From assembly GCF_000350165.1 (NCBI RefSeq), contig NZ_CAUI01000021.1, positions 62,001-126,000 on the forward strand: DNA of 64,000 nucleotides, given 5' to 3'. Below are positions 31,219 through 41,358 of the stretch, piece after piece (position 1 is the first letter of the stretch; each line of letters opens with the position of its first letter). The translations under genes were made by a program, and so were the position numbers. The stretch is from Halanaerobium saccharolyticum subsp. saccharolyticum DSM 6643 (GTDB taxonomy: Bacteria > Bacillota > Halanaerobiia > Halanaerobiales > Halanaerobiaceae). Under the pieces are notes generated by a model. That model worked only from the letters and a program-made list of their open reading frames with translations. It was not told where the DNA came from and did not search any database.

Positions 31219-31269
31219 TAAAAAAACTTGAGTTAAAGTTAAAAAAACAACAAATAATATTAAAAAACT

Positions 31270-31532
31270 TTGATCAGGGAAAGTAACTGGAATAATTTAT
31301 CTCAGCGAAGCAGGGTTAGTGAGAGCCTGCCGGTAAGTGTTTTAGTGAAGTTCCCCTGTGAGTTGTTAGCTGAACAAAAAAGTAAGCTTATACCGGCTGT
31401 CTACCGTTATCCTGACAGATTATTGGAACTAACTAAGTTTCTGTAATTGTTGAGTGGGCTTTTTATCAGCCAAAAAGATTGGTACCACGAGAATTCAAAC
31501 CCTCGTTCTTTAATTAGAACGGGGGTTTTTTG
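31270..31532 (+). promoter_or_regulatory. T-box leader, Phe specifier, controlling pheA
   Basis: Stem I closes with CAGGG (31275-31279) and CCCTG (31354-31358). It has the AGTA bulge on the 5' side and GAA on the 3' side, followed by the specifier TTC (31351-31353), a Phe codon. The distal arm (about 31300-31335) is the normal long form. The T-box motif TTGGTACCACGAG (31479-31491) offers UGGU to pair with an ACCA end, which fits tRNA-Phe with discriminator A. A strong terminator (31498-31532) competes with the antiterminator. Uncharged tRNA-Phe should allow readthrough into pheA. Confidence 0.93.
31498..31532 (+). terminator. Attenuator terminator of the Phe T-box
   Basis: AACCCTCGTTCT (31498-31509) pairs with AGAACGGGGGTT (31516-31527), followed by T residues. 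Confidence 0.92.
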
Positions 31533-31577: not shown

Positions 31578-32444
31578 ATGAGTAGTTTAGAATATGGATA
31601 TTTAGGACCACCTGGAACTTTTAGTGAACAGGCAATTTCAATTTATTGTAAAAAGCATGGGGGTAAAACAAAGGGTTTCTCATCAATTAGGGATATCGTT
31701 AAGGCAGTAATAAATGATCAGGTTCAGCTGGGACTGTTGCCTTTAGAAAATTCACTTGAGGGATCAGTTAATTTAAGTCTTGATCTTTTATATCAGCATT
31801 CGGAATTGAAGCTCTATAGAGAAATTATACTGCCAATTTCTCATTATTTGTTGGCTCAGAAAGGAGTGACTAAAGCAGAGATTAAAGAGATTTACAGTCA
31901 CCCTCAGGCAATTGCTCAATCTGGAAATTATTTAGCGAAAGAATTTGAAAATGCGAAAATTGTTTATACAGATAGCACAGCAGCAGCAGCAAAAAAAGCA
32001 ATGGAAGCTAAGAATAGGGCGGCGGTTGGATCAATAAGATTAGCTGATATTTATGATCTTGAAATTCTAGAAAATAATTTGCAGGGAGATTTGCCAAACT
32101 CAACTCGCTTTGTGTTAGCGGCCAAAAAAAATAAAGATTTTTCCGGGAATAATCATCTTGGAGAATCGGCAGCAAGTGATTTTAAAACATCTATAATTTG
32201 TGCTCCAGAGGTCAATGAAGCGGGAATACTTTATAAAATGCTTGGTAAATTTGCTGAAGAGAATATAGATCTAACAAGAATTGAGTCTCGCCCCAGCCGG
32301 CAGCAGCTTGGAGAATATATTTTCTACATTGATTTAAAAGGGTGTATTAGTGATAAAAATCTAAGTTCAGCCCTAGCAAAAGTGGAAAAAATGTCATCTT
32401 ATTTTAGACTTTTAGGTTCTTATACAAAGACAGTAATGGAATAA
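31578..32444 (+). CDS. pheA: Prephenate dehydratase
   Basis: 288 residues, a monofunctional dehydratase without a chorismate mutase domain. The catalytic PDT domain starts YGYLGPPGTFSEQA and contains PLENSLEGSVNLSLDLL and the conserved STRFVLAAKK near residue 178. The C-terminal ACT domain carries ESRPSRQQLGEYIFYIDLKG, the phenylalanine-binding region that gives allosteric feedback. It converts prephenate to phenylpyruvate. A Phe T-box upstream adds transcriptional feedback by the same end product. SD GGAGTG precedes the ATG. Confidence 0.97.
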   Translation: MSSLEYGYLGPPGTFSEQAISIYCKKHGGKTKGFSSIRDIVKAVINDQVQLGLLPLENSLEGSVNLSLDLLYQHSELKLYREIILPISHYLLAQKGVTKAEIKEIYSHPQAIAQSGNYLAKEFENAKIVYTDSTAAAAKKAMEAKNRAAVGSIRLADIYDLEILENNLQGDLPNSTRFVLAAKKNKDFSGNNHLGESAASDFKTSIICAPEVNEAGILYKMLGKFAEENIDLTRIESRPSRQQLGEYIFYIDLKGCISDKNLSSALAKVEKMSSYFRLLGSYTKTVME

Positions 32445-32494: not shown

Positions 32495-32523
32495 TTGACA
32501 GAAGTAAAATTGCCTGCTATAAT
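32495..32523 (+). promoter_or_regulatory. Promoter of the aro operon T-box transcript
   Basis: TTGACA (32495-32500), 17 bp, TATAAT (32518-32523): a consensus promoter. Confidence 0.8.
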
Positions 32524-32555
32524 ACTCATTAAATAAATAAATTCACTTAAAAACT

Positions 32556-32756
32556 TTGAAAGAGGACCTAGTAAGCTATAGCTGAAATACACCTCTTGAG
32601 TTGCCAGCTGAAAGTTAAACGAGTAAGCTTAAAGGCCGTCAACCGTCGTTACCCGGTGCGGAAGTGTTAGCTTCCAGAGAGATAATCTGTTATTTAATGA
32701 GATTAAAACAGGTGGTACCGCGATATCAATCGCCCTGACTAAGGGGCGATTTTTTG
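32556..32756 (+). promoter_or_regulatory. T-box leader, Tyr specifier, with very short Stem I
   Basis: AAGAGG (32560-32565) pairs with CCTCTT (32592-32597). Inside are the AGTA bulge, a 3-bp cap AGC/GCT with TATA loop, GAA, and the specifier TAC (32588-32590), a Tyr codon. Stem I is only 38 nt, against about 84 nt in the neighbouring Phe T-box. The Stem II region (GAGTTGCCAGCTGAA and GAGTAAGCTTA) matches that of the Phe leader. The T-box motif AGGTGGTACCGCG is at 32710-32722, and the terminator AATCGCCC/GGGCGATT (32728-32751) with T run ends the leader. It controls aroF-tyrA-aroA-hisC-aroF-aroC. Confidence 0.9.
32728..32756 (+). terminator. Attenuator terminator of the Tyr T-box
   Basis: AATCGCCC (32728-32735) pairs with GGGCGATT (32744-32751), followed by T residues. 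Confidence 0.92.
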
Positions 32757-32811: not shown

Positions 32812-33861
32812 ATGATAGCAGTATTAAAAAGAAATGCAAGTCAAGAAGATAAGAATCAAGTCATTGAGGTAATTAGAGGAGAAAATTTTGAGGTCCATCC
32901 AATTCAGGGAGTTGAAAAAACAGTAGTAGGTGTTTTAGGAGATCCAGCCAGAAAATCAAATTTGAAAGAAAAGTTACAGACGATGGGGGCAGTAGAAAAA
33001 GTTGTTTTAATCTCTGATCCCTATAAACTGACCAGCTGGAATTTCAAACAGCAGAAAACTGTGATTGATTTAGGTGATGGAGTTAAAGTTGGAGGCCCAG
33101 AACTGACAGTAATGGCCGGACCGTGCTCTGTAGAAAGTAGAGAACAGATAATAGAAACTGCAAAGATTGTTAAAGCTGGAGGAGCTAAAATTTTACGTGG
33201 GGGAGCATTTAAGCCAAGAACTTCTCCCTATTCTTTTCAGGGTTTAGGAGAAGAAGGATTAAAGCTAATGGCAGAGGCTAGAGAGGAAACGGGTCTAAAA
33301 ATTGTAACTGAATTGATGGATATTGAACATATAGATGTTGTTTGCAAATATACAGATATTATTCAGATTGGGGCTCGAAACATGAAAAATTACTCCCTTT
33401 TAAAAGAAATTGGTAAATTAGATAAACCGGTTATGCTTAAAAGAGGTATGGCAGCTACTATAAAAGAATGGCTTTTAGCTGCAGAATATGTAATGAATAA
33501 TGGTAATCATAACGTTATTTTATGTGAAAGAGGAGTTAGAACTTTTGGGGAAGAGACCAGAAATACCATGGACCTAAGTTCAATTCCTTTAGTGCAGCAG
33601 TTAAGTCATTTACCAGTAATTGCTGATCCTAGTCATGGTACAGGGCGCTGGGAGTTAGTGACTCCAGTTGCAAGAGCTGCAGTGGCTGTTGGTGCAGATG
33701 GAATTATGGTTGAAGTTCACCCTGATCCTCAAAATGCACTTTCTGATGGCCCTCAGTCATTAAAGCCTAAAAACTTTCAGTTAATGATGGACGAAATAAA
33801 TGCTATTTCCGAATCTCTGCATAGTTTTGAGGCTAGAGAAAGAAAAATAGCATATGCCTAA
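32812..33861 (+). CDS. aroF: DAHP synthase, type I-beta, copy 1
   Basis: 349 residues. An N-terminal ferredoxin-like regulatory domain (about residues 1-70, MIAVLKRNASQEDKNQVIEV) precedes the TIM-barrel catalytic domain with MAGPCSVES, GGAFKPRTSPYSFQG, LKRGMAATIKEWLLAAEY and IADPSHGTGRWELV (metal and PEP ligands). It condenses phosphoenolpyruvate and erythrose-4-phosphate. This domain order is that of the Thermotoga-type enzyme, inhibited by Tyr or Phe. It overlaps tyrA by 8 nt. A second, very similar copy lies in the same operon at 37181. Confidence 0.96.
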   Translation: MIAVLKRNASQEDKNQVIEVIRGENFEVHPIQGVEKTVVGVLGDPARKSNLKEKLQTMGAVEKVVLISDPYKLTSWNFKQQKTVIDLGDGVKVGGPELTVMAGPCSVESREQIIETAKIVKAGGAKILRGGAFKPRTSPYSFQGLGEEGLKLMAEAREETGLKIVTELMDIEHIDVVCKYTDIIQIGARNMKNYSLLKEIGKLDKPVMLKRGMAATIKEWLLAAEYVMNNGNHNVILCERGVRTFGEETRNTMDLSSIPLVQQLSHLPVIADPSHGTGRWELVTPVARAAVAVGADGIMVEVHPDPQNALSDGPQSLKPKNFQLMMDEINAISESLHSFEARERKIAYA

Positions 33862-37180: not shown

Positions 37181-38233
37181 ATGATAGCTGTACTTAAACG
37201 GGGATCAACTAAAGCTGATGAGCAAAAAGTAATTGAGTTGATAGAAGCGGAAGGATTTTCGGCTCATCCTGATACAGGAGCAGAAACTACAATTGTTGGT
37301 GTTGTTGGAGCTGCACCCGATAAAAAAGTTAATTTAAAAGAAAAACTGCAGGTTATGAGTGCTGTCGAAAAGGTAGTTGTTATTTCTGATCCCTATAAAC
37401 TAACAAGCTGGAATTTCAAACAGGAAAAAACAATCATTGATTTGGGTGATGGAGTTAAAGTTGGTGGAGCCGAACTGACTGTAATGGCTGGTCCCTGCTC
37501 GGTAGAAAGCGAAGAACAGATGCTGGAGACTGCCAGAATAGTTAAGGATGCAGGGGCAAAAATACTTCGTGGGGGTGCATTTAAGCCTAGAACATCACCT
37601 TATTCATTTCAGGGGCTTGGTGAAGAAGGACTTAAGCTATTAGCGATGGCCAGAGAAGAAACTGGTCTTAAAGTTATTACAGAACTAATGGATATTGAAC
37701 ATATAGATGTTGTTTGTAAGTATGCAGATATTATTCAGATCGGGGCTAGAAACATGCAGAACTATGCTTTGTTAAAAGAAATTGGGAAACTTAATAAACC
37801 AGTTATGTTAAAACGTGGTATGGCAGCAACAATTAAAGAATGGCTTTTGGCTGCAGAATATGTGATGAATGAAGGAAATCACCAGGTTATTTTATGTGAA
37901 AGAGGAGTTAGAACTTTTGGTGAAGAAACAAGAAATACAATGGACTTAAGTTCAATTCCTTTAGTCCAAAAAATAAGTCACCTGCCGGTAATTGCTGACC
38001 CAAGTCATGGTACTGGCCGCTGGGAACTAGTAACCCCAGTTGCTAGAGCAGCAGCAGCTGTTGGAGCAGATGGAATCATGGTAGAAGTTCATCCTCATCC
38101 AGAAAACGCTTTATCTGATGGACCTCAATCTTTAAAACCAGCTAATTTCAGACTGCTGATGGATGAATTAAATGCTATTATGACTTCTCTAAATTCATTT
38201 AAATCTCGAGAAAAGAAAATTGCCTATGAATAG
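37181..38233 (+). CDS. aroF: DAHP synthase, type I-beta, copy 2
   Basis: 350 residues, the same domain order as copy 1 at 32812: regulatory N-domain (MIAVLKRGSTKADEQKVIEL) then the barrel with MAGPCSVES, FKPRTSPYSFQG and IADPSHGTGRWE. By eye the catalytic domains agree in well over four fifths of positions while the first 70 residues diverge more. It begins 1 nt after hisC. All catalytic motifs are intact in both, so neither is a pseudogene. Different feedback sensitivity is the natural hypothesis. Confidence 0.96.
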   Translation: MIAVLKRGSTKADEQKVIELIEAEGFSAHPDTGAETTIVGVVGAAPDKKVNLKEKLQVMSAVEKVVVISDPYKLTSWNFKQEKTIIDLGDGVKVGGAELTVMAGPCSVESEEQMLETARIVKDAGAKILRGGAFKPRTSPYSFQGLGEEGLKLLAMAREETGLKVITELMDIEHIDVVCKYADIIQIGARNMQNYALLKEIGKLNKPVMLKRGMAATIKEWLLAAEYVMNEGNHQVILCERGVRTFGEETRNTMDLSSIPLVQKISHLPVIADPSHGTGRWELVTPVARAAAAVGADGIMVEVHPHPENALSDGPQSLKPANFRLLMDELNAIMTSLNSFKSREKKIAYE

Positions 38234-39559: not shown

Positions 39560-39635
39560 ACTAATTGAGAAATGAGAAATGAACAACAAATATTTAAAAA
39601 TTTCAAATCAAAATTCTCAAAGGAGTGTTTTAAAA

Positions 39636-40394
39636 ATGAAAAAGATTTTACTTTCGCTTTTATTGATAACTGTTCTGATGGTTCCGACAACTGTAATGGC
39701 TCAAGATATGGAAATCAATGGTGAACAGCCAGCTGATTCGGCACTTGCAGAAAACATAAACAGCAATTCTGCAGTAGCAGAGGTAAATGGTGAAAAAATT
39801 ACTCAGGCAGAATTAAAGAAGCAGGCAAATATAAATCAATTGTTACAGCAGTTAAGTCAGGTTGATCAACAGCTGGTTAAAATTTTAGCTGAGTCTAAAG
39901 CTGGTAATAATGTTTTAAAAGAATATCAGAAACAACAGCTGGATTCAATTATAGATAACATATTACTTGAACAAAAAGCCGAAGAAGAAGGAATCAGTCT
40001 TAGCTCTCAGGAAAAAGATGAGATCTATCAAAAACAGAAGCAGGCAATTTTAGATCAAAATAAGATGGACGAAGACCAGTTTCTATCAGTTTTAGAAAAA
40101 CAGGGCTATGAAAATGAAACAGAATATAAAAATGAGTTTTTAAATAATCCTCAACTTAAAGTAAATAAGCTAATTGAAGAAGAAATAGCAGCTGATATTG
40201 AAGTTAGTGAATCAGAACTTAAAGAAGCTTATGAATCAAATAAAGAAATTTTTGCTCAGGGTAAAGAAAATGTTTCATTTGAAAAGCTAAAACCACAGCT
40301 CAAGCAGATGTTAAAACAGCAAAAAAAGAGGAAAAAAATAGATAACTATTTGAGTGACTTAAGGAAAGATGCAGAAATAACTAAAAATATTTAA
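39636..40394 (+). CDS. Exported SurA-N-like chaperone, copy 1
   Basis: 252 residues from an ATG at 39636 with SD AAGGAGTG. An opening from 39579 lacks an SD. The signal peptide MKKILLSLLLITVLMVPTTV is cleaved after VMA. The mature protein carries AVAEVNGEKITQAELKKQAN, the start of a SurA/PrsA N-terminal chaperone domain, followed by helices rich in Gln, Glu and Lys. There is no parvulin PPIase domain, so it would be a holdase-like periplasmic chaperone rather than an isomerase. It is followed by a terminator and a second, similar gene. Confidence 0.82.
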   Translation: MKKILLSLLLITVLMVPTTVMAQDMEINGEQPADSALAENINSNSAVAEVNGEKITQAELKKQANINQLLQQLSQVDQQLVKILAESKAGNNVLKEYQKQQLDSIIDNILLEQKAEEEGISLSSQEKDEIYQKQKQAILDQNKMDEDQFLSVLEKQGYENETEYKNEFLNNPQLKVNKLIEEEIAADIEVSESELKEAYESNKEIFAQGKENVSFEKLKPQLKQMLKQQKKRKKIDNYLSDLRKDAEITKNI

Positions 40395-40525: not shown

Positions 40526-40608
40526 TTTATTTAGATAATAAAAAGATTTCTTAACTAAAATATTTCTATAGTTAAGTAAATAGTAATTTAAAGGGAGTGC
40601 TTTATTTA

Positions 40609-41358
40609 ATGAAAAAGATTTTACTTTCACTTTTATTGATAACTGTTCTGATGGTTCCGACAACTGTAATGGCTCAAGATATGGAAATGAACGGTGAGCA
40701 ACCAGCTGATCAATCATTAAATACCAATAATCAGGTTGTAGCAACAGTTAATGGAGAAGAAATAACTTCGCAACAGTTAGCTCAGCAGGCAAATGTTAAT
40801 CAAATTTTACAGCAGGTAAGTCAGGTGGATCAACAATTAGCACAGATATTAGCAAGTTCTGAAGCTGGTAGTAAAGTGCTTGAAGAACTGCAGAATGCAA
40901 AATTAGATAGTATTATTGATAATGTCTTATTAAAGCAGGCTGCAGAAGAAGCTGATATTACTTTAAGTCAAGATGAAAAAGATGAAATTTATCAGCAGCA
41001 GAAAAATGCTATTTTACAGCAGCAGCAGATGGATGAAGAACAGTTCTTATCTATCTTAGAACAGCAGGGTTATGAAAACGAAGCTGCATATAAAGAAGAA
41101 TTTAGTAATAATCCACAAATTAAAATCAATAAATTAATTGAAGAAAAAGTTATTGCAAACATTGAAGTCAGTGAAGAAGAACTGCAGCAGGCTTATGATG
41201 AAAATAAAGATGCCTTAGCTCAGAGTGGTCAGGACACTTCTTTTGAAGAAATAAAACCTCGTTTAGAGCAGATGCTGAAACAGCAAAAGCAGGGTCAGGC
41301 AATAAACGATTATTTAGACGAATTAAGAGAAAATGCTGAAATAGAAAAAAATATTTAA
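40609..41358 (+). CDS. Exported SurA-N-like chaperone, copy 2
   Basis: 249 residues from an ATG at 40609 (SD GGGAGTG). The signal peptide and first mature residues are the same as in copy 1, and the DNA of the first 80 or so bases differs at a single position. After that the two genes diverge clearly although the protein pattern is kept (VVATVNGEEITSQQLAQQAN; ENEAAYKEEFSNNPQIKINK). Like copy 1 it has no PPIase domain. It is richer in Gln. A terminator separates it from the two-component genes. Confidence 0.82.
   Translation: MKKILLSLLLITVLMVPTTVMAQDMEMNGEQPADQSLNTNNQVVATVNGEEITSQQLAQQANVNQILQQVSQVDQQLAQILASSEAGSKVLEELQNAKLDSIIDNVLLKQAAEEADITLSQDEKDEIYQQQKNAILQQQQMDEEQFLSILEQQGYENEAAYKEEFSNNPQIKINKLIEEKVIANIEVSEEELQQAYDENKDALAQSGQDTSFEEIKPRLEQMLKQQKQGQAINDYLDELRENAEIEKNI

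What the first reader, a model, noticed from the sequence alone, without database searches (positions are those of the whole stretch)
32556..32756. Tyr T-box with a minimal Stem I
Stem I of this transcriptional T-box is only 38 nt: base helix, AGTA/GAA loop-E motif, the TAC specifier and a 3-bp cap. The distal arm that stacks on the tRNA elbow is absent, although Stem II, antiterminator and terminator match the complete Phe T-box 1.2 kb upstream. Ultrashort Stem I forms are known for translational ileS T-boxes in Actinobacteria. One in a Firmicute transcriptional T-box for an aro operon is unusual and offers a natural paired comparison within one genome.
Basis: partly seen in the sequence, partly recalled or inferred. 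Interest (0 to 1): 0.7.

Follow-up and report, generated by a model that had tools for sequence, protein, structure and literature searches.

The report
Tyrosine T-box with minimal Stem I
A tyrosine-sensing RNA switch in the salt-loving bacterium Halanaerobium has lost the arm that such switches use to grip the bend of the tRNA, yet it keeps a transcription terminator and the short form is conserved in related bacteria, so it offers a natural test of whether that grip is needed when RNA polymerase has little time to decide.

Summary
Confirmed and extended. At 32547-32756 (+) lies a genuine T-box leader (Rfam RF00230, 75.6 bits, E 9e-17; 51 model positions of distal Stem I deleted) controlling an aro operon. 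Stem I is 38 nt (32560-32597): base helix, AGTA/GAA loop E, TAC specifier in a side bulge, 3-bp cap. K-turn, Stem II, IIA/B, Stem III, antiterminator, terminator and a 12/12 sigma-70 promoter are present. The short form is no one-off: seventeen short copies occur in 15 of 38 order genomes (5 genera, 4 families), upstream of aro genes or an NhaC-like transporter; one has a Phe specifier. The cap's fourth pair covaries (14/17; U-A, C-G, A-U). Relatives carry the long form on a similar backbone upstream of the same gene, so distal-arm length changed within one order, perhaps repeatedly. No short copy was recognised in several hundred genomes outside the order, but that screen used a lineage-trained model. 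'Ultrashort' is imprecise: the specifier sits in a side bulge, so the architecture is class IV-like (intermediate, no elbow module), a type reported as mostly translational. Novelty: a conserved transcriptional class IV-like variant of a known riboswitch. Function is inferred; nothing was assayed.

The parts
32495..32523 (+). sigma-70 type promoter TTGACA-17-TATAAT with TG before the second hexamer
   Evidence: 12 of 12 consensus matches; visible upstream of the relatives' copies too
32557..32600 (+). K-turn strands (UGA 32557-59 and GAG 32598-600) flanking Stem I
   Evidence: sequence; the strands are conserved in most aligned short forms
32560..32597 (+). minimal Stem I, 38 nt: base helix AAGAGG/CCUCUU, loop E AGUA/GAA, 3-bp cap AGC(UAUA)GCU
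   Evidence: folds as the MFE and centroid, pair probabilities about 0.9 or more, covariation in relatives
32588..32590 (+). specifier codon UAC (Tyr), in a side bulge between the base helix and the cap
   Evidence: position relative to GAA and the following A; tRNA-Tyr GUA present in the genome
32601..32636 (+). Stem II with S-turn (GAA 32610-12 / AGUA 32622-25)
   Evidence: RF00230 alignment, conserved in relatives
32636..32659 (+). Stem IIA/B pseudoknot region (F-box CCGUCGUUA); ACCG 32642-45 can pair with CGGU 32654-57
   Evidence: RF00230 alignment for the 5' part; conserved in short and long relatives; the pseudoknot itself is inferred
32660..32675 (+). Stem III hairpin GGAAG...CUUCC
   Evidence: fold -6.5 kcal/mol; conserved in relatives
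32709..32737 (+). antiterminator CAGG[UGGUACC]GCGA-loop-UCGCCCUG with T-box bulge UGGU 32713-16
   Evidence: 8 pairs, -5.8 kcal/mol; UGGU complements A73-CCA of tRNA-Tyr
32728..32755 (+). intrinsic terminator whose 5' arm is the antiterminator's 3' arm
   Evidence: -14.5 kcal/mol; a hairpin plus T-run is present in all 17 short copies
32812..33861 (+). regulated gene 1: 3-deoxy-7-phosphoheptulonate (DAHP) synthase
   Evidence: NCBIfam PRK08673 500 bits
33854..39498 (+). rest of the aro operon: prephenate dehydrogenase, EPSP synthase, aminotransferase (HisC-like), second DAHP synthase, chorismate synthase
31261..31512 (+). comparison: Phe (TTC) T-box with complete Stem I, before prephenate dehydratase (31578-32444)
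   Evidence: RF00230 106.4 bits

Best explanation
It is a working tyrosine-responsive transcriptional T-box whose Stem I lacks the elbow-binding distal arm. Uncharged tRNA-Tyr is read by the UAC specifier and held between the short Stem I (loop E) and Stem II (S-turn), which dock with the help of the K-turn and IIA/B pseudoknot, as in IDTM-less ileS T-boxes. Its ACCA end then pairs with UGGU in the antiterminator bulge, which blocks the terminator and lets the aro operon be transcribed. Shown here: the elements, their conservation and covariation, and the mutually exclusive terminator and antiterminator. Inferred: tRNA binding, docking and readthrough.
For: All defining T-box elements other than distal Stem I align to RF00230. 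Terminator and antiterminator share one arm and a terminator follows all 17 short copies. Fifteen of 38 order genomes hold short copies. The cap's 4th pair is standard in 14 of 17 with U-A, C-G and A-U types (shuffle mean 8.3, p 0.0014); base helices change in a compensated way between AAGAGG/CCUCUU, AUGGGG/CCCCAU and AAGG/CCUU. tRNA-Tyr has GUA and A73. Aro genes and a transporter are regulated, as expected for a Tyr regulon.
Against: No experiment. The review literature holds that transcriptional T-boxes need the IDTM for fast binding (PMC7583486). The score is under the Rfam gathering cut-off. The 17 sequences are related, so the shuffle p value is optimistic. The three inner cap pairs are nearly invariant and say nothing by themselves; two copies break the first (A-C).
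Confidence: 0.85

Rival explanations
1. Decaying T-box: the distal arm was deleted and the element no longer responds to tRNA; terminator and promoter merely persist.
For: Loss of a module described as essential in transcriptional T-boxes (PMC7583486); score below the Rfam cut-off.
Against: Short form kept across four families with compensatory changes in the cap and base helix, and specifier, loop E, S-turn, T-box bulge and terminator conserved.
Confidence: 0.06
2. Full function needs a compensating partner: a K-turn-binding protein or the high intracellular salt of halophiles stabilises Stem I-Stem II docking in place of the elbow contact.
For: K-turn conserved; reviewers suggest L7Ae-type proteins may assist T-boxes (PMC7583486); high Mg2+ rescues docking defects in an ileS T-box (PMC10651847). 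That Halanaerobiales are salt-in halophiles is background knowledge, not tested here.
Against: Eleven other T-boxes in the same genome keep long arms, so cytoplasmic conditions alone do not explain it; no protein was sought.
Confidence: 0.25
3. The short form is an ancestral T-box type retained in Halanaerobiales, and long arms were added later in the sister genera.
For: The tree of backbones cannot tell gain from loss (at least 4 changes).
Against: No short copy was recognised outside the order, where all inspected hits are long; 11 of 13 own T-boxes are long.
Confidence: 0.1

Closest known systems
Class IV T-box (Actinomyces odontolyticus ileS; PMC10482949)
   Same: Intermediate Stem I without IDTM, specifier in a side bulge between two helices, Stem II present
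   Different: Class III and IV mostly regulate translation and the type example is Ile; here an intrinsic terminator, Tyr (once Phe) specifier, Bacillota aro genes and an NhaC-like transporter
Class III T-box (Nocardia farcinica ileS)
   Same: No IDTM; tRNA held by Stem I plus Stem II
   Different: There the specifier is in the apical loop of a short Stem I; here loop E and a separate capping helix are kept
Class I T-box (B. subtilis tyrS; long Tyr aro T-boxes of related Halanaerobiales, L048, L050, L051)
   Same: Stem II S-turn, IIA/B, Stem III, antiterminator, terminator, Tyr specifier, same regulated gene in relatives
   Different: Class I keeps the distal IDTM arm: 57-69 nt between AGTA and GAA in L048, L050 and L051 against 10-14 nt in the short copies
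TBDB class I hits flagged with truncated Stem I (PMC7778990)
   Same: That database already sets aside RF00230-type hits predicted to have truncated Stem I
   Different: No description of a conserved transcriptional group, its amino acid or its lineage was found in the main-text passages read; supplements were not readable

Membership tests
T-box riboswitch (RF00230) | T-box bulge UGGN within an antiterminator | tested here: met
   UGGUACC bulge 32713-19 in an 8-bp antiterminator
T-box riboswitch (RF00230) | Specifier codon matching a tRNA and the regulated pathway | tested here: met
   UAC; tRNA-Tyr GUA with A73; aro operon
T-box riboswitch (RF00230) | Score over the curated gathering cut-off (93 bits) | tested here: not met
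   75.6 bits, E 8.9e-17, with a 51-position deletion; the short NhaC copy passes at 104.4 bits. The cut-off is a curation threshold, not a structural feature
T-box riboswitch (RF00230) | Response to uncharged tRNA | not testable with these tools
   needs in vitro transcription or a reporter
Class I T-box | Long Stem I with distal double T-loop motif (IDTM) | tested here: not met
   51 distal model positions absent; cap is AGC-UAUA-GCU
Class III T-box | Specifier in the apical loop of a short Stem I | tested here: not met
   specifier lies 3' of GAA in a side bulge below a separate cap
Class IV T-box | Intermediate Stem I, no IDTM, specifier in a side bulge between two helices, Stem II present | tested here: met
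   definition from PMC10482949
Class IV T-box | Mostly translational (antisequestrator) output | tested here: not met
   terminator with T-run overlapping the antiterminator; the Shine-Dalgarno lies about 40-50 nt past the terminator. 'Mostly' does not exclude transcriptional members, so it is filed only as class IV-like

The most novel reading that the evidence does not exclude
In Halanaerobiales the tRNA-elbow module of transcriptional T-boxes was lost repeatedly, in Tyr and in Phe elements, without visible change in the rest of the leader, so that Stem II docking alone is fast and strong enough for a decision during transcription, against the view that the elbow contact is essential there.
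Probability: 0.45. Interest if true: 0.65.

Novelty: new variant of a known kind. Interest (0 to 1): 0.52.

Why it matters
Reviews explain the long Stem I of transcriptional T-boxes by kinetics: the elbow contact speeds tRNA capture before polymerase reaches the terminator. A conserved natural family that lacks it but keeps the terminator, with long-armed relatives upstream of the same gene on a similar backbone and a long-armed Phe T-box 1.2 kb away, makes that explanation directly testable with natural RNAs instead of engineered deletions. It also warns that Rfam's gathering cut-off can miss such elements.

Tried and rejected
Alternative full-length Stem I fold: rejected. Ultrashort (class III) reading: rejected, the specifier is not apical. 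Translational control: rejected, a terminator is present in all short copies. Short hits outside the order (L082, L085, L090-L092, L119-L121): on inspection all are long Stem I aligned partly. Single origin of short copies: the tree is weakly supported; AU test p 0.049, 4 changes by parsimony, so not settled. The automatic structure for model R1 was incomplete because base helices were misaligned, but it still separated short from long copies by match length together with reading. Listing every T-box of the order with RF00230 was cut at the best 150 rows, so short copies with an unusual Stem II could be missed. Sherwood 2015, Vitreschak 2008, Gutierrez-Preciado 2009 and Lehmann 2013 are not held, so earlier mention of truncated Firmicute T-boxes cannot be excluded.

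Full report
Observation. The leader before the aro operon is a T-box: cmscan aligns 32547-32740 to the whole RF00230 model with 51 distal Stem I positions missing, 75.6 bits, E 8.9e-17 in a 391-nt search. It is missed at the gathering cut-off in a full-window scan, which reports only the Phe T-box at 31261-31512. Read from the sequence, Stem I runs 32560-32597 (38 nt): AAGAGG / ACCU / AGUA / AGC-UAUA-GCU / GAA / A / UAC / A / CCUCUU. This fold is the MFE and centroid, with pair probabilities of about 0.9 or more locally and 0.94-0.97 at four spot-checked pairs in the whole leader. K-turn strands, Stem II with S-turn, the IIA/B F-box, Stem III and the antiterminator follow.

Transcriptional output. 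The antiterminator CAGG[UGGUACC]GCGA...UCGCCCUG (32709-32737, -5.8 kcal/mol) shares its 3' arm with a terminator (32728-32751, -14.5 kcal/mol) followed by a T-run. A 12-of-12 promoter lies at 32495-32523. All 17 short copies have a terminator hairpin and T-run. The genome has two tRNA-Tyr genes with GUA and A73-CCA, which match UAC and UGGU. Downstream genes are DAHP synthase, prephenate dehydrogenase, EPSP synthase, a HisC-like aminotransferase, a second DAHP synthase and chorismate synthase.

Same genome. Of 13 T-boxes found, two are short, both with TAC: this one and one before an NhaC-family gene (L010; NCBIfam antiport_nhaC 418.7 bits). The other eleven, including both Phe T-boxes (one before a pheS-like gene, one before prephenate dehydratase), have long Stem I by reading.

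Relatives. The window belongs to Halanaerobium; its nearest named relatives are H. congolense, H. saccharolyticum, H. kushneri and H. polyolivorans. A covariance model of the short form (R1) finds 17 short copies in 15 of 38 genomes of the order, in five genera and four families: aro operons in Halanaerobium and a sister genus, aroA-led operons in G020 and G026, NhaC-like genes in G000, G014 and G024, and in G020 a second short copy with specifier TTC (Phe) before a DAHP synthase. The named Halanaerobium loci show the pair 'long Phe, short Tyr' repeatedly. In genus g6 the Tyr T-box immediately upstream of the same DAHP synthase is long, with similar Stem II to terminator (L048, L050, L051); a long Tyr copy also lies about 1.4 kb upstream of DAHP synthase in two f6 genomes (L046, L047).

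Covariation. The cap's inner pairs are almost invariant, but the fourth pair is standard in 14 of 17 distinct sequences with three types (6 U-A, 5 C-G, 3 A-U; mean 8.3 in shuffles, p 0.0014; relatedness not removed). Base helices also change in a compensated way. This argues that the cap is a selected hairpin.

Distribution outside the order. The same model run over 398 phylum genomes, the class, and four further classes gave no recognised short copy; the short matches, when read, were long Stem I aligned partly. The model was trained on this lineage and needs a Stem II, so this shows rarity of this form, not absence of all short transcriptional T-boxes. It does pick up some long T-boxes with other specifiers.

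Evolution. A tree of the T-box backbone without the distal arm needs at least 4 changes between short and long; one clade of all short copies is borderline (AU p 0.049), and support is weak on 180 columns. Repeated loss is likely but not shown.

Mechanism. In IDTM-less ileS T-boxes Stem I and Stem II dock around the anticodon arm, and K-turn, S-turn and pseudoknot matter for this (PMC10482949, PMC10651847, PMC7583486). The sequence elements for all of these are present here. I infer the same docking, followed by the usual reading of the free 3' end and antitermination. What is unusual is the combination with a terminator: the review literature links transcriptional control with an essential, rate-enhancing elbow contact (PMC7583486).

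Classification. By the four-class scheme the architecture is class IV-like, not class III or 'ultrashort'. Class III and IV are described as 'mostly' translational, so exceptions are not excluded by the authors. TBDB set aside RF00230-type hits with truncated Stem I, so isolated cases have probably been seen; I found no description of this group, but key papers were not available. Verdict: new variant of a known kind.

Noticed in passing
L081, L074, L075, L082, L084, L085, L087, L089: Long Tyr-specifier T-boxes precede tryptophanase/tyrosine phenol-lyase family genes in several genera across the phylum, hinting at Tyr-starvation control of that enzyme.
   Followed up: partly
L077 (G020:C4:105194-105297): Short Stem I T-box with Phe specifier TTC before a DAHP synthase; related genus g6 has long Phe T-boxes there (L068, L070, L078).
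   Followed up: partly
L050, L051: About 540-590 nt separate the specifier from the T-box core (110-165 nt in the other copies), a large insertion between Stem III and the antiterminator of a long Tyr T-box.
   Followed up: no
L073 (G029:C18): Phe T-box with an intermediate Stem I (39 nt between AGTA and GAA) lacking an obvious canonical distal loop.
   Followed up: no
window 32812-33861 and 37181-38233: Two DAHP synthase genes about 82% identical sit in one aro operon; the pair is kept in other Halanaerobium.
   Followed up: partly
L010, L063, L066: Tyr T-box before NhaC-family genes suggests that these are tyrosine transporters, not plain Na+/H+ antiporters.
   Followed up: no
window 39579-40394 and 40597-41358: Two adjacent paralogous exported proteins with nearly identical signal peptides (SurA/PrsA-like by eye).
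   Followed up: no
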